64,000 bases of DNA, from the NCBI GenBank assembly GCA_025345505.1, contig JANVCC010000261.1, positions 2,127,486-2,191,485 on the forward strand. Reading direction: 5' to 3'. A program made the position numbers and the translations under genes. This document shows positions 151-18,107 of this stretch, one piece after another (the stretch's first letter is position 1; each line of letters starts with the position of its first letter). This DNA is from Todiramphus chloris collaris (lineage: Eukaryota > Chordata > Aves > Coraciiformes > Alcedinidae). The notes beneath the pieces were generated by a model. It was not told the origin of the DNA, made no database searches, and saw nothing but the letters and a program-made list of their open reading frames with translations.

Positions 151-283
151 CTGGAAGAACAGGCTGACCCTGCTGTAAAACAGGAATCTCCATAGATGTT
201 GCCCCATCGGCCTGGTCCCAGGCCAGCCATCGATGCGCAGGGAAAAAAAACTGCTCCCCTGAGAAAAGGTTCAGCAACTGCAC
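151..283 (-). CDS. PLAT/LH2 domain exon C (C-terminal part)
   Basis: This 133-nt exon has acceptor ggtgctgtttag and donor ccag|gtaagc. It encodes 44 codons plus one base. The peptide begins VQLLNLFSGEQFFFPAHRWL, followed by AWDQADGATSMEIPVLQQG. This matches the end of LOXHD1-type PLAT units (v.L..l.tGe.y.Fp..RWLa.deDDg...rElpv). Exons A, B and C total 384 nt (128 codons), and the unit starts and ends in phase 1, so it is a symmetrical module that could be repeated. Because the exon ends on a donor, the transcript must continue past the left edge of the window. The longer ORF over this region (147-344) is in a different frame and is not the real reading. Confidence 0.88.
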
Positions 284-2750
284 CTAAACAGCACCAAGAA
301 TTGCAATTTGAGTGGCTGATCTCAGCCCGGATAGAACAGAACATAAAATGTGTGGGATGCTGTTAAAATCTGTGTAGGTAGAGCTCTGTGGCACGATCAC
401 AAAACCATGGCTTTGGGGCATGCCTGCTCCCCAGATCCAGCTGACCCGAGTCTGACTTTCTTTTTCTTTTTTTTTTTCAGCCAAGTTTGAAAGTGCAGGG
501 CAGAGTAACTCAGGTGCAGCTGGCATATCCACATGGGCTGGCACTAGGTGGCATGACTTACCAAACACGGAACTTCTCACTTGGAAGCTTGGCAATGCTT
601 CTGGTTCTATTCCTTTAACTTATTTTCTTAACAGAACAGGAAATAAAGGAACAGGTTTTGATTCTTCAGCACTGCTTGTGACCTAAATAAACTGTGAAAG
701 TGCTAGCCCCAGCACCAGCCCGCCCCACACAGTTTTCTTCTGTGCCCAACTTTCTGCATTTTACAGCAGTAAAAGGACCATATGCACATGAACTGAAGAA
801 GGGAAGGAGCTCTAGTTATTTTGTACTTCAAAGTACTCCTCAGTAAGCACCTCAGAGGCTGCTGTATATTAGAATAGTCCCTAATTATGCTAATTTATAC
901 TAGTAGCTACACTTGATTTTGGACCAGCAGAAAGAAGCAAAACCACTTTACCTGTAATTTCACTCCTGCTCTGTGCTTTGCAGAATCTTATCTCCTTAAT
1001 TAGAATATTGAACAAATTTGGAAACACCGAACAAATTCAGAAACACTGGAAACACTTTTATCACTTCTACTGCTTGAATAGTAAACTTTAAAGAAAGAGA
1101 TTTATCTTGTCTGAAAAATCTGGCACATCTTGGACTGTCAGCTTTACTGAGGGATCTTGGAAAGGGTGTTAGAGAAGCAGCACCCTATGGTCATTGGCAG
1201 GCCTGATGCCATCTCAGTGCTGAGACAGCCACAGAAACCACGGGGTGCTGATGGAGGACTAGCATGCCTAACTACCAGAAAAGCTCTGCAGCTGTAGAGC
1301 ACTCTCTTCATTTCAGATCTTCCATTAAAAAAATGCAGATTTCCCAAAGAACAATGATGTTAAGTGTCTGACCAGAAGGTTGCTTCTCTTCTGTGAAGCC
1401 TACAAATTAGTGGCTGTGCTCCTTTGTCTCCATGCAACACAAAACACTTGGGTACTTGTAGAGTGTGTTTGGTTGAATGTATTTCTCTTCTTTAACTTTG
1501 TGCCCAAAGTTGCAAAGAGGGAATGAGTCAACCCTGGCTGATGAATCACTGCCTAAGAGCTGTGCTTGATTGACTGAGATTTGGTAAGGAACAAAAAAGT
1601 ACAATTTCTAAGCCAAGACTCAGTGAGAATCCTTCTTTTAAAATGTTACTCTTGATTTCATTAAATATATCCTGCCTAGGAAGTGTGAAGGGGAATAATA
1701 ACTGCTCATTTTCTCTTTCCCTTTTTTGTCAGACTTCTTTAATATCTCAATTTAAATGGGTGTGTCTTCTACAAAGCAGGCAGTGCAGCCTCCCTTCATG
1801 GAGGATGATGTACAACAAACATTCAAAGGTCCATTTGTTGAGTCAGACTTTATGATAATCAAAACTTCTAATACCAAGATTAAGCAGACAAATGAACCTT
1901 TTCTATAAGAGAAAATCCACTGTTCTCTTCTAGCTTCTCAACTCAGATACACTTCAGAAATTTCTGGCAACCTGTCCCTCTGTCTCACAGAACAAAGCTG
2001 AGGTATTTCCTACCTTTTCACTGCTTACACACACATTTATGAGAAAAAAAAAATAGCGAGGAACAGAAGAAAAAAAAAGTACCTTAAGTGATATTCTGAC
2101 TCGTACATTCCCCAGAGCAGCACTAATGTTAAGGATAAAAGCCAGACCCTTTCATTCCCAGACCAAAAAACCTGTAACAACTGAAGCCTGAAACGGAACT
2201 AGCTGATTCCCTTTGCTTTATCATCTCTGCTTTACCCAAATCAAGATCTTTCTAAAATAAGTAGGGAAAAAAACCTGTTACTGTTCTTTACTCCTCAGAG
2301 ACACAGAACTAGAAACATATGCAATGTAGCTCTGGTATTGTGCATAAGGACCCAGAGTCAGCCCCAGATTTGAGGAGGACTTGGCATTGAACTTCAGTTC
2401 AGTGACTTTCTGAGTTTCAACAAACTCTAGACACTCCGTGGCATACCAAGACTGGAGAAGACTCAGACCACAGCAGCCACCTTAAGCAGTCTTTCTTGTT
2501 GCCCAGCCACACATTTTTAAAGACACAATGTACAGCTCCCACTAAACTGCAACCAACCAAGACATACCATCATAAGCTGCCTTTAATTCCACACAAAACC
2601 ACTCCTTCATAAATAATCTCTAAAATGAAGCTGCAAGCACTTGGTGAGGTTAATATACTTATCCTAGGGATTTCTTTCTGACTCATACTTTGACTCCACT
2701 GTCATGGTGACTGCTTTTAGAAAGATAAAATTCTTTCTCCCTGTTTTTAC
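284..2750 (-). other. Intron of the PLAT gene (B to C)
   Basis: This intron of about 2.5 kb is AT-rich. I found no additional exon with PLAT motifs; exons B and C already join seamlessly within the domain, so none is needed. Plus-strand ORFs such as 1643-1855 have no recognisable content. Confidence 0.75.
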
Positions 2751-2837
2751 CTCTTCACAGTGCCAGGCAGGGGAGTTTCCAGTGTTCGTGTGTCCTATGC
2801 GTATTTTGTAGAGATGTCCTATGTTTCCAGTATTAAT
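2751..2837 (-). CDS. PLAT/LH2 domain exon B (middle)
   Basis: This 87-nt exon of 29 codons starts and ends on whole codons. The acceptor is gtttcttttacag and the donor is gag|gtaaaa. The peptide begins INTGNIGHLYKIRIGHTN and ends SPAWHCEE. This is the central PLAT signature, usually written as lG.LyKirIGHDNtG...sWfc.eV. One departure is Thr where the family generally has Asp in GHDN, a site often linked to metal or loop structure. The exon continues exon A (ending DIFT) and is completed by exon C (starting VQLLNL). It is too short to appear as an ORF and was found by searching for the motif. Confidence 0.9.
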
Positions 2838-4846
2838 CTGTAAAAGAAACTACTGATGAAACACAGAACATTTGTTAAAAGGAAGACATGCAACAGAAAG
2901 TCGTTTAGTAACTGTCAGATGACACTTTTGTTTATAGAAATTAAATATTCTGCTATTTAAACAAGTGTTTCCAAAATACCTTTGCTTTGGATAATCATTA
3001 GAAGCTTGGCTCTTTTAAAGGGTAGCTCTTCAAAAACCTGTTGGCCTGCCAATCCCACTTAAATGGCTTCAGGATGCTACTGCAGCATTGTTCCCCACTG
3101 AATACTGGGCTCAGTGAGAGATGAAGACAGACTGTGTGACTAAAAAGCAACAGAATCTTGATCTTTAAACCTGTCTCAGTTTAGCACCTATACCACTGAC
3201 CTGCTACAAAACTGTTTCTGTCTCCCAAGCACCTCCCACATACCTCTGAGTTTCTCCCTACCCCTCCAGCAGGGTATGCCTTACAAGTTTGGAACCAATT
3301 CTGTTCAGCTTTGATGTTTATTTTCACAAATAATTTTAAGTAAATCAACTTAAAACACTGTACTTGAAAGATTAGTTTCTAGGCAGGCTGGATGAGTGTG
3401 TCCAGTACAGATAACAGGCTGCTGAGGGAATAACTTTGCATGAAGGTCATTCAAACAACTAGTTATGAACTTAAGTGTAGGAATATAAAGCTTATCTTCA
3501 AGGAACTGGAGACACACCATAAGTGTCTTCCCTTCTTGCTATATAATTTTTTTTCTTATTATGTAGGCTGGACTTGCCATCCTTCTGTTGTTTTCTGTAG
3601 AATTCATTTTCATGTTTTCATTTACAGTGTAGAGGTGGGTGTGAACCGAGTTCTCTGTATCATGAACTTCCCTGAACCCAATGTTAGAAACAATAGAGAG
3701 ACAGAGCAGAGCAGACAGACCAAAGTTAACTGAGATCGATCAGACAGCACAAGCAGAAAGGATTTTTTCTTTCTACATATTTCAGAGTACACTCCTTAAT
3801 TATATTAATTGCTATGGTTCCTCACCTAAGAGAGGAATCCTACATCCCAAACCAGGAACTGCCTCCAGATTTTGCATTTAAAAATTATTGGAGATGAAAT
3901 TAATTACAATAATAGGAGCAGGAAACAGAATCAAGACCATCTGATTGTAAAGAGGTTATCTTTATCCATCAGGTACTTGGTTACTGAATGTATCTACTTC
4001 TTCTAATCTTACAACTGTGGGGTTTTTTACATCACAGATGGAGAATGAGATACTCTCAGAGGTGCTGGATTCCTCTGAGAAACTCCATCGGGCTGAAGAG
4101 GGCTAAGAACTGCATTTCCTACATCCCAAACAGCTACAATGCTATTGTAGGAAAGGTGAGCTCTTCATCAGTGCTCCCATTATATACCTTTTCTCAGAAG
4201 GGGACTTGCTGTGCTGGGTACTAACAAGCACCTGTTTGTTACACAGATCTATAGCTTGCATCTGCTAGAGACACCCACTGACAACCCCATAGAGATGGTC
4301 AAGCTAGGCAGCTTTTGATGTTATGATATTTTGATATTACGACCTATTCTGGCTCACTTAAATCACTGTGCCACAAGACTGCTGGGGGAGAAATTTGTTT
4401 GTTTATCTGGGAGCAGAAGCAGCTTCAGACAGACAGACTTTATTACAGGTATAAAAATTGCCATTATTTAAATAAAGCAGTAAGTATTCAACAAAGCTAA
4501 AAATTTACTCCGCATCCTACTTCTTCATTTCCTCATTTCATTTTTAATACTGTAGCCCCATTCCATGTTCAAAACCTAAACAGGTATCTGTTGTTCTATA
4601 TTTTTTTGGGCACAACGTAAATTAACCAGTAGTTCTTAGACAAGAAATATGTTGGATCAAATCAGCTTTGGATAGGTGAGTGGGAAAGGATACTAAATTT
4701 AGTTTTACATGTAAGTCCTGTTTCTTGTTTCCAGATATACGTGCCATACAAAAAACTGACTGTCTTTTAATCACATAGATTTTGAAATGTCAGGCAATCT
4801 GGCAGGATATAAGATGAGGGCAACGTGATGAATATAGACTACTTAC
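2838..4846 (-). other. Intron of the PLAT gene (A to B)
   Basis: This intron of about 2.0 kb lies between phase-0 junctions. It is AT-rich, with no repeat family I can name. Plus-strand ORFs at 3440-3733 and 3988-4224 lack domain features and are considered chance. Confidence 0.75.
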
Positions 4847-5010
4847 TGTGAAGATGTCTTCATTGCCTCTCTGAAATAATTTTCCTTCCTCTCCATCCAG
4901 AAAAAAAGGCCCTGAACTGCTGTGATCCCCATAGAATGTAATATAAACCTTTGAGGTTGTTCCTGCAGATGGCACATCACTGGTGAGGACTGACACCTTC
5001 CATTTCCTAA
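4847..5010 (-). CDS. PLAT/LH2 domain exon A (N-terminal half)
   Basis: This 164-nt exon is bounded by acceptor tatcttttggtag and donor aca|gtaagt. After two bases completing a split codon it encodes 54 residues starting RKWKVSVLTSDVPSAG, then TSKVYITFYGD, and ending QRGNEDIFT. This is the first half of a PLAT (lipoxygenase homology, LH2) domain: the opening beta strand with its GAGT-like turn, the vYItlfG strand, and the RG.eDiFt strand typical of LOXHD1-type repeats. The donor is phase 0, matching the next exon at 2751-2837. The exon is 3.0 kb beyond the RP1 stop on the same strand. It can be spliced in frame from RP1 exon 3 (a+tt gives Ile) or from the signal-peptide-like exon at 5952-6048 (g+tt gives Val). 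PLAT domains usually bind lipids or membrane proteins. Confidence 0.9.
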
Positions 5011-5951
5011 CTACCAAAAGATAAAAAGACTCACTGAATTACTTAAACTCTGGATTCTTAAGCAAAATATGCACTTCAGTAATCAAAATTCTAAATAATA
5101 TGAGTGAAAGAATACAGAAATAGGTATTTTACAAAATTGCATCAGGCAAATATGGAATTTGCTACATTGGGCAAGGAAAAGTCAAGAAATGTCAGGGTGC
5201 ATTCACATCTTTCACTTTGCATCTGCCATAGGACTAAATCAAATTTACAGGGACATAGAACACTTCTCAAACACAGTTTTGAAATACTGTATTAAACCAT
5301 ATTAAGCGTGGCTTTCAGTTTACTTTGGATACATCACCTCTTCCCAGTGCAGTGCTGCATAAAGACAGGATGCAGGCTTGCAGCAAGCTCGCTCTGGAAT
5401 TACAAACTCATCATTTCAAGCACTAGGATCTCTCAAAGCAAATCAGCTCTGCTGAAAGAGACATCCTCAAGAGAGGATCTGTGTCTCTGCAAAGGTGTGA
5501 TGGGCCGTGCAGCTCTAACAGCTTGTCTGGAATCCACTGAAGGATTACCAACTTATTCTCACACTGTGCTGTTGGCATTAGACCCTGAAATATCAGTACT
5601 CCTTCCAGACTTACATTTGATAATTATCAAGACCAAGTATATGGATTTAGAGTTTGGGTTTTGGAGTTTGAATATCAGTGGTGTGGAATTCAAGGGAAAT
5701 GGTATCACTGAGACATGGCTCATAACAGAAAGAAATATTGAGAAAACACCCTCACTCCCAATGTTTCTAATTAGCTGACAGCCATCTCAAACTTTACACA
5801 TTTAAGCACCTCCTGAGCTTGCTAAGATCTTTTTGGACCCCTGCTTAATATCACTGTCTCTTAAAAGAGAACCTTCCTTCAAAGTACCTCAGCAGTAATA
5901 AAGGGCCCTACTGACTACAGAAGCCCCCCATCATCTAATGACACATTTTAC

Positions 5952-7958: not shown

Positions 7959-7964
7959 TTTATT
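7959..7964 (-). terminator. Possible RP1 polyadenylation signal (AATAAA)
   Basis: Read on the minus strand, AATAAA lies about 67 nt after the RP1 stop codon. Another AATAAA is at 6460-6465, about 1.57 kb after the stop. Mammalian RP1 3' UTRs are longer than 70 nt, so the proximal signal may not be the main one. The stretch 6100-8030 is otherwise AT-rich and is probably 3' UTR plus spacer; no recognisable protein is encoded there. Confidence 0.35.
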
Positions 7965-8030: not shown

Positions 8031-11000
8031 CTACTTCAAGTCATCTTTGCTGTTTTCATTGTCTGTTCTACTGAAGCAAACTTCATCTTCATCTTCTTCA
8101 GTAGGAAAGGCATTTTCATTTTTCAGATTGTCAGAGGCATGACGTTCGGTGTTATTTAAAGAAGTGTCACACTTCAGAAATGTTTCAGAATGACAGGTTT
8201 CTGCTGGATCTGCCAACATGGGAGGAAATTTTTCTCCAACAATAAAAATTAGACTTGTTCTTAGGGTTTGGCATATTTTTGGGTTTCTGTTGGGTAGCTC
8301 GCTACTTGTGCCTACCACAAGACCGCTGGGTGTGTGTTGGGATACAGTATTTTGACAGTTGCTGACTTCCTCAGGTTTTACATTCATATCCTCTATAACA
8401 TGTAACTTCCCTAAACTGCTTGGGTCTTTCAGAGATGAAGATGCAAGTATGCCAAAGTTGCTAATAAAATCTAAAGTGTTATTAGCATAAAACCTATTAA
8501 AAATATTATTGGCAATCTTGTTGATACAGTTATTCTTCAGAGTCACACGATTATTTTTGTCTGTTATCAAATCTTCACCCGACCATTGTAAATATTCATG
8601 CTTTTTGGGCAACAAACACGGAGCCAGCTGGTTCTCAATATCAGATGCTTTTTGGTAAGCACATCCTCTCTGTTTCTCGTTAATTGGCGTTACTGTCACC
8701 ATCAGTATTGGACAATGTTGGCCACATATAGCATGGAGTTTATCCAGAGAATCTTCCTCCCGAAGAGCACTTCTGTTAGCATTACTATCATCAGTCGGCT
8801 GAGACTGTACGGGTTCATCATTTAAAGGCTGTTCCAGTGGGTGCACCTTGTTATCATGCAATCTAAATTCTACAGATGTAAAGGTTGGAAAATTGGTATC
8901 AGCCTGTGTGGAAGTAGAACCTACCATGACTGATGGTTTGGTCTTTTCTTTATTTACTGCAGGAAGGGAAGTGCTCTTACCATTGCAGCTACGTTTGCTT
9001 TTTGTACTGAGGTCATCCCGAAAGGGGTCTGAATCACTGTTATGAGGTATATTGAAGTAGTTGCAGAAATTTTCAGAGGGTTTAGCCATGTCTTCAAGTT
9101 CTGAAGAAGAGATTTCGTTAAGGACAGGATACTGATTCAGATTGCCAAAGTGTGAGTATGGGACATCATCACTGTTAGTATCAAGGACTGTGTCTGTTGA
9201 CGTTGTATCCAAATTACCATACATTCCAACCTGTTCAGGTGGTGATCGTCTTATCAGATGATTTTCTTTGAGAAGCCATTTGCCTTTATCTATCAATATT
9301 CCTTCATCTTCTTTAGGTCTTACACTAGGTTGACAATGTTGCACTGGAGATTCCCCTGAATGGTCATCAGTATAACACGTCTCTTTTCTGCTATGAGTAG
9401 ATTGTGGTGTTGGTAAAGAATTGTTTTCTCCTCTCGATATAGTGTCTCCTTTGGTTATGTTTACTGGAAATTCTTGCAAAGAATGGGACAATTTCTCTGC
9501 AGAACAAGACCTAGATTCTTTAGAAAAGTGGAATTCTTCGGTGTCCTTTTGAAGTGCTTTAGGCAAATAGGGAAATCCTTTGTTAAAGTCAGGCTTAAAT
9601 GAAGCTTCATTCTTGCCATAAAGGCGTTCAATAGTTCTTCTTACATAGCCGGTATTATAATGTTTTTCAAGTAGTGCTTCGTCACCGCTTCCATTGGTCA
9701 AATCACTGGATGCTCTAAGGTTATCATCACTGTCTTCAGAATCTGGCCTGTAATCTGACCAGTCTGAAGTAGCAGGACTTTTTAAGCATTTTTTTAGTTG
9801 AGGAGGGTCTGCACACATTTTCTTGTCTAGTTCTGCTACTTGCAATTTCTGTTCTCCTTCACTCATATCACATTCTGTACCTTGCTTTGATTCGTAACAA
9901 AATGATAATGGAGAGATTGTAGATAACCTCTCAGACGTTTCCTCACAAATTTCAGTATCTTCCTTGTCTTCCTGTAGAGAATAATCCTCATTATTATATT
10001 CTACAGAGGTTTCAGCAGCTAGTTTAGGTTGGTTATTTGAGTTTTCATCATTACCTGACAACTTTGGATCAACTTTCTCATCTTCACTTTTATCAGTAGC
10101 AACATGTACAATACATTTTTCACCTTCTACCTCAGATGTATCCTGATCTAAACCACAATTTTTATCATTAGAAGTTACACTATGAACTGTTGAGTTAGGT
10201 TCTACTGAAGTTTCTGACTCTTCATAAGTGAATGATGTATCAGTGTCTTTATCTTGATATTTTTCACATAGGCTATCAGGCATTTCTTCATTTCTTTCAG
10301 GTGTCTCTATAGCTGATGCAAGGCTACAGGTATTTGAATTAGTATTGGCATATTGACCATCTAGCTGTGTTTTGGAAGCACTCAAGTCAAAAGTCTCTGC
10401 TTCTCCACAAAGATATTTCTGTGTATCAAAACAGCTTTCTAATTCACCAATTGATTTTAGAGCTTCTTCAGAATTTACACTGTCCTTTGGAATACAAGGC
10501 TCAACTGATTTTTCATTTTCATGCAAATGTATACCATTATGAATTTCAGATATGGGTATATTCTCATGGCATTGTATGGAGTCCTGCCTTTTGAGTTCCC
10601 TCCCAAAGTGTAGTAAGTTATTTTCTGTTGGTTGTTGAAAATGTGAGAAAACAGTCTTCAGTTCATCAGCTTTTTCCGTGACCGTAGTTTGTTTCAGCAA
10701 TTGTAACTGTGTAAATATCTCAGAACAGCTACAGGTAGTTTTCTGCATATCATCTTTGATTGTCCCAATCAAACTCTCTCTCAGATTCAGTACAAGCAGC
10801 CAAGCTAGGAGGACATTGGAGGAAGAACCAAAAGTTGAAGGAGAAATTTCTGAAAATCTGCAAGCTTTTCCTATACATCCACTGTGTTCTTTCTGGAGAC
10901 CAAGCAAGGTTGACTGTAGCTCATGAAGCAACAAGCTAGACACACAGTTATTCTGAAGATCAATTCCCATTTTCTCATTAATGATTGTGCAATCAACTTG

Positions 11001-13561
11001 AACAGCAACTTCAGATTTTTTGCTCTGATATAGGTTGGTATCTTGAATGTCAGCTTCTGACATCTTTTTATCTTTGTCATGTGTTTCACGAAACACATGC
11101 AGTTTACCATCATGATGAAATTCTGACTTCAGAGAATACTTGGCTGCTTCTACTACAGTTGTATTAGCATGAATCAAAGAGTCAGCTTGGTTTTCACCTG
11201 ATTCCTTGGCTGATTCTTCTAAAGTTCCCAATTCACAAATAGGCTTTAATGTTTTTTTGGTTAGATTATGTTCAATCAGATGTTTTTCTTCAGTCACATG
11301 CACTTCATTTGTGATAAATCTTGTTTCTTTATCTACAGAAACATCACTATTTTCTCCAGGAAAATGACAGTCACTGCTATTCTCTACATTACCTTCCTTT
11401 TTTTTTATCGGAGGTAAGACAGAATTTGGTAATAAATTTTTCAGCCAACTTTGGACGTAGTTTTCAAGTGAATGCTCAACAAGAGGTTGAAAATCCTCCT
11501 GGTTTAGAGCCTCTAGTGTAATGGCTCTCTCTGACACATTTAACTTACTCTCACCTTTACTTGGATTTTTCTTCATCCCCTTTTGCTTTTTCTGTTTCTT
11601 TGATGATAAATTTTCCAAAGTATTATTTTCCTTTTCTCCAAAGTTAAGGTTCTTTGGCACTTCTGACAATAGCTTTGAAACCACTGATGAGTTCAGAGTC
11701 TGTTCGTAAGAATCAGTTGTGAGATGTGAACCTTCTTTCACAGTACCCACTGTATCCAGACTGTGTTGAGATTCGTTGTTTGAATCAACTGTCATTACAC
11801 CATCATGACTCTTGGAAGATGAAACAATACTTTCTTTTTTGCCTGACTTCAATTTTACCTTGGCTAACTTTTTGTTGTTACTTCTTGGTTTTTTATTAGA
11901 TGATATTCCATTTTGTTCCCCAGAATCCTGGTGATAGAACTCATCTTCAGGACATACAATTTTCTCTGAATTAACAAACTCCTTGTTTCTTACAAAATAT
12001 TCTGTTCCTTTCTTCTGAGGCATTTCAGAATAATTATCCACAGCCTCTGTTGTAGAAACCTGTGTGATATCCATTCCCTCACCTTTAATTATGTCCTTGT
12101 CTTTTTGATTTTCATATGTACCTTGCTTTGGAAAGTTAGATGATTTTCTCTTCTTCTTCTTCTTGGTGACAGAAGATGCAGATTGGCTGTCATCAGTGAG
12201 ATGTGGTGGCGTCACAGATTCAGACTCAACACTGATTTGATTCTCACTTTCAGTAACAGCAGGAAAGAATCCAGTTGTTGGACTAATTTTCTCAGTAGGA
12301 GTTTTACTACGTGAATGTACCATCATCTTTGTCTGGCTATGTCCTGAACAGGCTGAATGCACTGAATCTTGAGAAATAGGTAATAAATCATCAGCTTTGC
12401 ATTTTGTTTCTTCTTTTGATTGGCATAATTCTGAATATCTAATAAAAGAACTCAGTGATCTTTTTATTTGTTTAATATCACATGACTCCTGAATGTGGTC
12501 TGCTGACACTGGCCGAGCTTCCTGGTAAGTTTTTGATGATGGTTTGAAACCACTGATGTTAGCTTTGTAGGTTGATACTAAACTATTATATGTACCTTGT
12601 TCCACAACCGATTTCTCTAATATATTCGGTACCAATTCATCCTCGTCAGGCACTTCTAATGTCTTCCTATTTGTGGTTTCTATTAAATCACTACTTCTGC
12701 GGCTTACTTTAACAAGCATTTCTTCTTTTATATTCTCTGAAGAAAGCTTTAATAAATCATTGCCACTCACCTCACTAAACTTTGGATTAATGACACTCGA
12801 TTTTTTTCTGCTTGAATGAGCTACCATGCAATACTCAGATTTATTTTCTCCATTCTCTACTTCCTCACTGTAGGAAAACTGTCCTATTGTCTTCTCCTGA
12901 ACCTCTTTCTCAGATACCAAGGTGACACTTTCAACTACTGCTTTCTTTTGTCTAACACGCCTTGGCCCAGGGGTGGGAGGCCTATAAAAGCGAGGCCTAG
13001 TATTATCCTCAGGTTCACTGCTTACATCCTGATCTGCAGAATTATTCTTCTTACAATCATTACAATCAGCAGTTTTTAAATCAGACTCCGATTCTTTGTC
13101 TGACCCTTCTGCGTCGAATTGCTGTAATGAGTCTCCCTCTTCTTTATTGCAGCTCTTCAAAAACGGAGCATCTTTTGCTTTTATACATTCTGCCACGTTT
13201 CCATTGGATAAGCAATCTTCTGCACGCACTGCAGAATTGCAAATGATGGCATTTTGGTCATCAGAAAGGCCAGCACGACTTACAGTGGTTGTCCATTTAA
13301 TTGTCTCTTCCTCTTTAATTTTTAATTTAACTTTCATTTCCACTGTGATGCTGCCATCTTGATTAAGGTGAACAGATTTCACAATGTCATCTTCGTACTG
13401 TGCCACGGATAAGCCTTCACCGGTAACTGACTGATTTCCTCCTATACCATTATGACTGTCAGGAACATAGGAAGAATCTGAGTTGTTATCATTGCTGGAC
13501 CCTTTGTCAGAAGAAACTGAGAATATCTGAGATCTTGAGCTAGAGCCCATTTCAGCTCTCG
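8031..13561 (-). CDS. RP1: RP1 exon 4: giant terminal exon of oxygen-regulated protein 1
   Basis: This last coding exon (5531 nt) encodes residues 272-2113, ending at a TAG at 8033-8031. The acceptor tattggtag sits just before 13561; the ORF can be read a few codons further upstream from a TTG, but that stretch is intron. The region is hydrophilic and Ser/Glu/Asn-rich, as expected for RP1. Blocks I recognise from mammalian RP1 are SSSRSQI at the exon start, RPPTPGPRRVRQKK (about 465-478), a KKKKKRK basic run, LLLAWLLVLNL (about 1187), SDWSDYRPDSE (about 1535), LIDKGKWLLKENHL (about 1695) and LDKLHAICGQHCPIL (about 1885). The protein is 2113 residues against about 2156 in human. The exon is intact. 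In humans, truncations in this exon cause dominant retinitis pigmentosa, so an uninterrupted frame suggests a functional gene. Confidence 0.97.
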
Positions 13562-16335: not shown

Positions 16336-16507
16336 TATTTTCACTTTCTGACTTGGCATTTGCTTTTGGGTATACACGATTTGCAATTCCAAGCAATTTA
16401 GCAGGCCGTGAATACCCAAGAGAATCATAATTGCTTGGTTTAAAAGGCTCTCTCCCCGCTGCGACTACAGCTCCAGAGCACAATATCAGGGCCTGAAGAT
16501 TAGGAAC
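16336..16507 (-). CDS. RP1: RP1 coding exon 3: end of second doublecortin domain
   Basis: This 172-nt exon encodes residues 214-270 plus one base of codon 271. It completes the second DCX domain ([23 protein letters not shown]) and adds the short linker that includes [14 protein letters not shown]. The acceptor is tcttccttccag after a long pyrimidine tract, and the donor is aata|gtaagt at 16335-16334. Exon 2 ends in phase 0, so this exon starts on a whole codon and ends in phase 1. The split codon is a + cg from exon 4, giving Thr271. From memory the human exon 3 is also 172 nt (its donor variants are named at c.787+1). The phase-1 exit matters because the downstream PLAT exon at 4847-5010 accepts the same phase. 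Confidence 0.95.
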
Positions 16508-17468: not shown

Positions 17469-18107
17469 CTTCCTGCCATCAGTGGTATACAGCTTCACGA
17501 CTGGATATTGCATTAACTCACTCATGTAATCCAGAAAGGCCTCAAAAGTCTGTGTGTTTTTCTTCCCCAGAACTATGGTGCGCCTGAGTCTTACATCCCC
17601 ATTTTTGAAAACAAGCATCTTTTTGGGAGTTGTTATTTTGATGTCTCGATGGCCGTATCCGTCTTCGTTCTCCCTCGCTAATTGCACAGCTCGACGGCGA
17701 GCGCTGATGGGCCTGCTGATCTGCCAGGGCAGAGGCTTTTTGCTAGCCTGTTCCAGGTTGATGGGCTTCATTTTCCTCTGATGGGAGCAAATATAAGACT
17801 TTCCATCTTCAAGATCCTCCAGATTAGTAATGCTGTGTCTCCCTTTCGGCGTACTAATATTCCTTACTCCAAAAGGTAAGGGGACTCTTTTGGACAAACT
17901 GTCCAGCAAGGCATCAAATGTTTTGTAAGACCGGCTATTAACAACCATTTTGATCCCATTAAACTGGGGGTCTCCACTTTTGTAGAAACAGATCCGTTTT
18001 GCCACAACGGGTTCAGTAACGTTGAGATGGCGCGTCGATACGCTCTGTTCGCTCTCCGAGGAGTTTGCCTGATTCACCGAGTAACTCGTTGAAGGTGTTT
18101 CGCTCAT
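17469..18107 (-). CDS. RP1: RP1 coding exon 2: start codon and doublecortin domains
   Basis: This is the first coding exon of RP1, a microtubule-associated protein of the photoreceptor outer-segment axoneme. It encodes residues 1-213. The first DCX domain is at about 36-118 (KRICFYKSGDPQF, then PLPFGVRNISTPKGRHSI). The second starts near 162 (KKMLVFKNGD) and runs to LYTTDGRK at the exon end, continuing into exon 3. The start ATG is at 18107-18105, and MSETPSTSYS resembles the mammalian RP1 N-terminus. A pyrimidine-rich acceptor (ttttccttccag) places the exon border at 18119, leaving 12 nt of 5' UTR, so at least one non-coding exon lies upstream. The donor is aag|gtgaga after residue 213, phase 0. 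The tandem DCX pair could also suggest RP1L1 or DCDC2, but the N-terminus and the long last exon fit RP1. Confidence 0.97.

What the first reader, a model, noticed from the sequence alone, without database searches (positions are those of the whole stretch)
151..5010. A complete PLAT/LH2 domain encoded by three cryptic exons just downstream of RP1
Exons 4847-5010, 2751-2837 and 151-283 (minus strand) have canonical splice sites, matching phases (1-0, 0-0, 0-1) and join into a 128-codon PLAT unit with the LYKIRIGH and HRWLA hallmarks. Classical RP1 gene models stop at exon 4, so these exons belong either to an extended RP1 transcript or to a separate neighbouring gene. I have a recollection that extended RP1 transcripts are annotated in mammals, but I cannot verify their domain content here.
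Basis: partly seen in the sequence, partly recalled or inferred. Interest (0 to 1): 0.85.

Follow-up and report, generated by a model that had tools for sequence, protein, structure and literature searches.

The report
Hidden PLAT-domain tail of RP1
In this bird-like genome the blindness gene RP1 appears to continue for about 147 kb beyond its classical end into exons for a string of 17 PLAT domains, so the same microtubule-binding head could be given a second, very different tail, although no RNA was available to prove the splicing.

Summary
The three minus-strand exons have GT-AG sites, the stated phases, and join into a PLAT domain (Pfam PF01477, 74.4 bits, E=1.6e-20, cut-off 23). They are not an isolated unit: the genome continues the array off the window's left edge. 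A homology-guided model gives 46 PLAT exons in 17 units over 147 kb, all on the RP1 strand, with no internal stop, ending in a TGA exon 9.4 kb before an XK-related exon. RP1 exon 3 exits in phase 1 and the first PLAT exon enters in phase 1. Skipping exon 4 therefore gives one open frame of 2,450 aa: two doublecortin domains plus 17 PLAT units. Best reading: exon 4 is an alternative last exon, and RP1 has two mutually exclusive tails. The units form eight A-B doublets plus a terminal one. Intron places are shared with a LOXHD1-like array, so the two look related. Thirteen of 17 units pass Pfam's cut-off; four do not. No RNA or second species was available. Nine open-access paper searches listed none linking RP1 to PLAT, but I recall (unverified) that mouse and human databases annotate RP1 over more than 300 kb. 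So: probably known as annotation, little studied.

The parts
17469..18107 (-). RP1 exon 2 from the ATG at 18107 (donor phase 0), tandem doublecortin domains
   Evidence: donor score 6.6; Pfam DCX on exons 2+3: 124.5 bits, two stretches
16336..16507 (-). RP1 exon 3, 172 nt, phase 0 in, phase 1 out
   Evidence: search conditioned on phase 1 exit; no such condition, same best pair, 15.3; the human boundary at c.787 (also phase 1) appears in PMC11878163 as variant c.787+1G>A (passages)
8031..13561 (-). RP1 exon 4, classical last exon (1,842 codons then stop), proposed alternative last exon; acceptor is weak
   Evidence: acceptor score -2.8; the acceptor at 13561 was picked by phase 1 and by recall of the human sequence
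7959..7964 (-). AATAAA polyadenylation-like signal starting 69 nt after the first base of the exon 4 stop codon
4847..5010 (-). PLAT unit 1, exon a (phase 1-0)
2751..2837 (-). PLAT unit 1, exon b (phase 0-0)
151..283 (-). PLAT unit 1, exon c (phase 0-1); the array continues off the window as units 2-17, from C146:2122538 down to the TGA ending at C146:1985889

Best explanation
The three exons encode the first of 17 PLAT domains in a long 3' extension of RP1. RP1 exon 4 behaves as an alternative last exon. When the splicing machinery takes exon 4 and cleaves at its AATAAA, the classical protein is made: two DCX domains plus a 1,842-residue tail. When exon 4 is skipped, exon 3 joins the first PLAT exon in frame, and the product is two DCX domains plus 17 PLAT units (2,450 aa). 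Inferred function: the DCX head binds axonemal microtubules, while the PLAT array binds lipids or membrane proteins along its length, so the long form would tether the axoneme to the surrounding membrane in a ciliated sensory cell. Shown here: the exons, open frame, phases, domain order and resemblance to the LOXHD1-like array. Inferred: the splice choice, expression and tethering.
For: The array is on the RP1 strand, directly downstream, its first acceptor 3,023 bases after the exon 4 stop. In the model the 47 introns are GT-AG and the frame runs 2,450 aa from RP1's ATG to one TGA. Exon 3 exits in phase 1 and unit 1 enters in phase 1; units 1 to 16 all begin in phase 1, unit 17's first exon is fused to the end of unit 16. 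Pfam PLAT is over the cut-off for 13 of 17 units, 2 are below it and 2 give no PLAT hit. All 17 score 28.3 to 131.0 bits leave-one-out, against at most 8.0 in their shuffles (500 made per unit, 329 to 443 of them scored). Codon-position GC of the PLAT exons is 0.53/0.37/0.40 against 0.38 for the locus. Exon 4 has a weak acceptor and its own polyadenylation-like signal. PLAT repeats are described as lipid and protein binding (PMC8051682, passages).
Against: No RNA: neither the 16336-to-5010 junction nor any PLAT junction was observed. A phase match alone has a 1 in 3 chance. The model was homology-guided, with splice sites chosen to keep the phase; some are weak (unit 10a acceptor -3.9, unit 16b acceptor -5.4, unit 15a donor -2.0). 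Units 9 and 11 are too diverged for Pfam. Units 9, 11, 15 and 16 were completed partly by eye; the automatic scores of 15 and 16, 1.0 and 6.8, were no better than background (where they are named U14 and U15), so their leave-one-out scores are partly circular. Exon 4 also holds three donor-like sites over score 6, two of them in phase 1, so a long form that keeps part of exon 4 is not excluded. No second species was available for a dN/dS test.
Confidence: 0.8

Rival explanations
1. The PLAT array is a separate LOXHD1-like gene with its own promoter and first exon, lying head-to-tail behind RP1.
For: LOXHD1 is known as a stand-alone PLAT-array gene, and a LOXHD1-like array lies on C678 of this genome with no DCX match on that contig. 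The link to RP1 rests on phase and position, not RNA. One ATG-to-donor candidate exon of the right phase exists at 5615-5723 (donor 4.1).
Against: No in-frame ATG before the first PLAT exon. The first unit starts at once with the domain and in the phase of RP1 exon 3. No CpG island between RP1 exon 4 and the array, which is weak because none was found at RP1's own start either. I recall, unchecked, mammalian RP1 gene models long enough to include it.
Confidence: 0.14
2. The array is a decaying relic: once coding, now a pseudogene.
For: A-type units 9, 11, 13 and 15 and B-type units 10 and 16 lie on long branches. Some splice sites are weak.
Against: No stop or frameshift in the 2,179 PLAT codons of the model, though exons were picked to be open. 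Codon-position composition is coding-like. 13 of 17 units still pass Pfam's PLAT cut-off.
Confidence: 0.03
3. Chance open frames assembled into a PLAT by flexible exon picking.
For: The exons were first joined by eye, and the modelling is homology-guided.
Against: 117.7 bits leave-one-out for unit 1 against at most 3.2 in shuffles. Fourteen non-array stretches of this region gave automatic scores of -13.4 to 12.7, against 29.7 to 176.3 for 15 of 17 units and 1.0 and 6.8 for the other two; the profile was built from up to nine of these units, so their scores are flattered.
Confidence: 0.005

Closest known systems
LOXHD1 (15 PLAT repeats, hair-cell stereocilia; DFNB77)
   Same: Tandem PLAT array. 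Best-scoring splice sites fall at the same places and phases in L003, L005 and L007: phase 1 at domain start, phase 0 after FERGQ or DIFK, phase 0 after WFCEK. Best-matching other contig in this genome (unit 2 exon 59% identical over 51 aa).
   Different: No DCX match on contig C678; 15 repeats by PMC8051682; the four domains of it tested did not group with RP1's A-type units. That C678 is LOXHD1 is my inference from the PLAT cluster.
Classical RP1 (oxygen-regulated protein 1; two DCX domains plus exon 4 tail)
   Same: Same first coding exons and DCX head.
   Different: The canonical human transcript has four exons and 2,156 aa (PMC11878163, passages). The form proposed here drops exon 4 and adds 17 PLAT units.
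RP1L1 (paralogue; taken to be C7:1120656-1121132 here)
   Same: Tandem DCX head (103.2 bits).
   Different: No clear PLAT signal in C7:1075000-1114999 behind it: best 5.6 bits against 58.9 in 40 kb of the RP1 array, whose units trained the profile. About 5.7 kb next to the exon was not fetched.
PLAT domains of polycystin-1 and lipoxygenases (solved structures)
   Same: The profile of the 17 units finds them first: 6a70_B polycystin-1 E=1.4e-19, 3v98_A 5-lipoxygenase E=3.4e-16.
   Different: A single PLAT stretch per chain in that search, in a polycystin or an enzyme, not an array.

Membership tests
PLAT/LH2 domain (PF01477) | Match over Pfam's curated cut-off | tested here: met
   Unit 1: 74.4 bits, cut-off 23. 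Of 17 units, 13 over the cut-off (1-8, 10, 12-14, 17); units 15 (17.4) and 16 (19.9) under it; units 9 and 11 no PLAT hit.
PLAT/LH2 domain (PF01477) | Beta-sandwich fold | not tested
   Sequence match to solved PLAT domains only.
PLAT/LH2 domain (PF01477) | Lipid or protein binding | not testable with these tools
   General statement in PMC8051682 (passages).
RP1 gene | Tandem DCX domains at the N-terminus | tested here: met
   Two DCX stretches, 124.5 bits.
RP1 gene | PLAT exons spliced in frame to RP1 exon 3 | tested here: inconclusive
   Phases match and the frame is open, but no RNA evidence exists here.
LOXHD1 | The LOXHD1 locus itself | tested here: not met
   The LOXHD1-like array lies on contig C678; this one lies on C146 between RP1 exon 4 and an XK-related exon.
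LOXHD1-like PLAT array | Tandem PLAT units with shared intron positions | tested here: met
   Three of five LOXHD1-like loci examined (L003, L005, L007) show the phase-1 start and phase-0 internal donors at matching places. L002 holds its PLAT in one open stretch, and in L006 the best acceptor is phase 1 but inside the domain. Sites are predicted, not observed.

The most novel reading that the evidence does not exclude
RP1 is a dual-output gene. An alternative last exon decides whether the microtubule-binding DCX head carries the classical exon 4 tail or a 17-PLAT membrane-binding tail built from eight A-B doublets and related to the LOXHD1 array. The long form would be an axoneme-to-membrane tether, and it would be lost in exon 2-3 mutations but spared by exon 4 truncations, which would help explain RP1 genotype-phenotype differences.
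Probability: 0.4. Interest if true: 0.75.

Novelty: new member of a known kind. Interest (0 to 1): 0.5.

Why it matters
RP1 is a retinitis pigmentosa gene whose canonical transcript is described as four exons (PMC11878163, passages). If the PLAT exons are expressed, then (1) variants in them are missed by tests limited to the canonical transcript, (2) exon 2-3 variants and exon 4 truncations hit different sets of proteins, which bears on why some RP1 variants are dominant and others recessive, and (3) the deafness gene LOXHD1 and the blindness gene RP1 would share an ancestral PLAT array, a link between hair-bundle and photoreceptor architecture. All three can be tested with RNA and variant data.

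Tried and rejected
Looked for further PLAT units with the spliced-alignment program on the minus strand: in the exon 4 to unit 1 gap, three stretches upstream of the RP1 ATG, five gaps within the array, one stretch beyond its end and two control stretches (-13.4 to 12.7), and later across RP1 exons 2 to 4 (9.7 and 8.6). None stood out. Looked for a PLAT tail behind RP1L1: none by profile; three gapped scores there were 26.8, 15.6 and 12.1 (with a profile that includes the weak units). The 26.8 is close to my weakest automatically accepted unit (unit 11, 29.7, called U10A), a warning about unit 11 taken alone, although its leave-one-out score is 28.3 against at most 5.9 in shuffles. Looked for an independent first exon between exon 4 and unit 1: one candidate. 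One search also lists a 160-codon stop-to-stop frame there on the plus strand (5296-5778), not pursued. NCBIfam: no hit; it is a prokaryote library. The last lines of the script failed after the tree and group identities had printed, so identities per unit are not available. Nine paper searches listed no paper that, by title and abstract start, joins RP1 with PLAT. Not all hits were listed: one search showed 20 of 82, 15 of 27, 1 of 2. One search's one hit is an Arabidopsis paper, one search had none, one search listed a dog-breed variant paper, and one search listed an owl genome paper (PMC7566403) that holds both LOXHD1 and RP1, seen in the listing only. PMC10111803 on retinal transcript units does not name RP1 (passages).
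Full report
OBSERVATION. The three exons are where the finding puts them. All have AG acceptors and GT donors; lengths are 164, 87 and 133 nt; phases are 1-0, 0-0 and 0-1; the joined frame is open and holds LYKIRIGH and HRWLA. Pfam gives PLAT at 74.4 bits, E=1.6e-20, cut-off 23, over profile positions 2-107 of 117.

SURROUNDINGS. An exon-by-exon PLAT search listed 23 matches: four on C146, all on the minus strand, from 2132484 down to 1991904; eleven on C678, which I take to be LOXHD1; eight elsewhere. I fetched the 200 kb below the window. An iterated profile, into which only minus-strand segments were taken, found 36 candidate segments with E under 5 in the 264 kb: 35 on the minus strand, one of these upstream of RP1 at E=1.1, and one on the plus strand at E=4.3.

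GENE MODEL. A small spliced-alignment program fitted the units one at a time, and the exons were then chained. The result is 46 PLAT exons in 17 units. With RP1 exons 2 and 3 it makes 48 exons and 47 GT-AG introns, and an open frame of 2,450 aa ending in TGA at C146:1985889. From unit 1 to the stop is 146,607 bases; from RP1's ATG, 159,704. The model was homology-guided: sites were chosen to keep phase, some are weak, and units 9, 11, 15 and 16 were completed partly by eye. (Searches use an older numbering, in which U10A is unit 11 and U11-U16 are units 12-17.) Controls: fourteen non-array stretches of the region scored -13.4 to 12.7; fifteen of 17 units scored 29.7 to 176.3 and two, units 15 and 16, only 1.0 and 6.8. 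Up to nine of the units had helped to build that profile. Each unit against a profile of the other 16 scores 28.3 to 131.0 bits, while its shuffles (500 made, 329 to 443 scored) reach at most 8.0; with A-type units only, 32.6 to 112.1 against at most 11.9. Pfam passes 13 of 17 units: 1-8, 10, 12-14 and 17. Units 15 and 16 fall short, and units 9 and 11 give no PLAT hit.

LINK TO RP1. RP1 exon 2 (ATG at 18107) ends in phase 0 at 17469. Exon 3 is 16507-16336, 172 nt, and leaves in phase 1. The first search for it demanded that phase; a repeat without the demand gave the same best pair. In human the same boundary is c.787, also phase 1, seen in the variant name c.787+1G>A (PMC11878163, passages). 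Unit 1 enters in phase 1, as do units 2 to 16; unit 17's first exon is fused with the end of unit 16. So exon 3 can join unit 1 in frame by skipping exon 4. Exon 4 enters through a weak acceptor (-2.8), runs 1,842 codons to its stop, and has AATAAA 69 nt on. With a threshold of 400 bases, GC over 0.55 and CpG ratio over 0.6, the only CpG islands in the 264 kb are at 47.9-50.9 kb of the joined sequence, beyond the last unit. An XK-related exon (91.5 bits) starts within them at C146:1976449, 9.4 kb after the TGA and on the same strand. Since RP1's own start has no island in the stretch held, the lack of one before the array says little. The order RP1 then an XK-related gene on one strand fits the RP1-XKR4 order I recall from mammals.

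INNER STRUCTURE. Odd units 1-15 (A) and even units 2-16 (B) form two groups in a tree of 22 domains: A is parted from B, the LOXHD1-like domains, unit 17 and one domain from C42 (polycystin-like, my guess) at 100/99, and B is held together at 94/92; the labels need 2 changes, a number that 0 of 200 shuffles reached. The array is thus eight A-B doublets plus unit 17. The tree is weak in detail: 1 of 19 inner branches has full support and 9 are drawn open; the four LOXHD1-like domains do not form one group. Units 9, 10, 11, 13, 15 and 16 are on long branches, so their exact places are unsure. Unit 17 has a mean identity of 41.0% to the LOXHD1-like domains, against group means of 31.2% for B and 22.9% for A, and the highest Pfam score (85.9). 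Three of five LOXHD1-like loci share the phase-1 start and phase-0 internal donors at the same places. RP1L1, RP1's paralogue, shows no clear PLAT in the 40 kb examined behind it.

HOW IT LIKELY WORKS. Choosing exon 4 or skipping it would give two RP1 proteins with one DCX head. The DCX head is known as microtubule-binding (established knowledge; a paper so titled is in the reference list seen). PLAT repeats bind lipids and proteins, and LOXHD1 staining forms a ring around the actin core of stereocilia (PMC8051682, passages). So the long RP1 would lie between axonemal microtubules and membrane. This step is inference.

WHAT IS KNOWN. Nine searches of the open-access library listed no paper joining RP1 and PLAT; three of the nine listings were cut short. 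Passages of four papers were seen; none was read whole. Most subscription papers and all gene databases were out of reach. I recall, without a check, that GENCODE mouse Rp1 and human RP1 span about 410 and 360 kb, which would leave room for such exons. For that reason I call this a new member of a known kind, whose domain layout and LOXHD1 link seem little studied.

LIMITS. No RNA, no second species and no fold model. Everything about expression and function is prediction.

Noticed in passing
L009-L023 (C146:1985889-2127485): The PLAT array is eight alternating A-B doublets plus a terminal LOXHD1-like unit. A-type units 9, 11, 13 and 15 have diverged far; 9 and 11 are invisible to Pfam.
   Followed up: yes
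window 13561: RP1 exon 4 has a weak acceptor (score -2.8) compared with exon 3 (12.9), as an alternative last exon might.
   Followed up: partly
L023-L024, C146:1975386-1978385: CpG islands with an XK-related (XKR4-like) exon on the same strand, 9.4 kb beyond the PLAT stop; 400 bases between the islands are an assembly gap.
   Followed up: partly
L032 (C7:1120656-1121132) and L037-L040: RP1L1-like tandem DCX exon with no clear PLAT array in the 40 kb examined behind it, so the PLAT tail may be specific to RP1 among the pair.
   Followed up: partly
L041 (C678:883400-884700): A LOXHD1-like PLAT unit carries a lysine/glutamate-rich insertion inside the domain.
   Followed up: no
window 11555 and 12083: Two phase-1 donor-like sites (6.6 and 7.6) inside RP1 exon 4 that could give a third form with part of exon 4 plus PLATs.
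   Followed up: no
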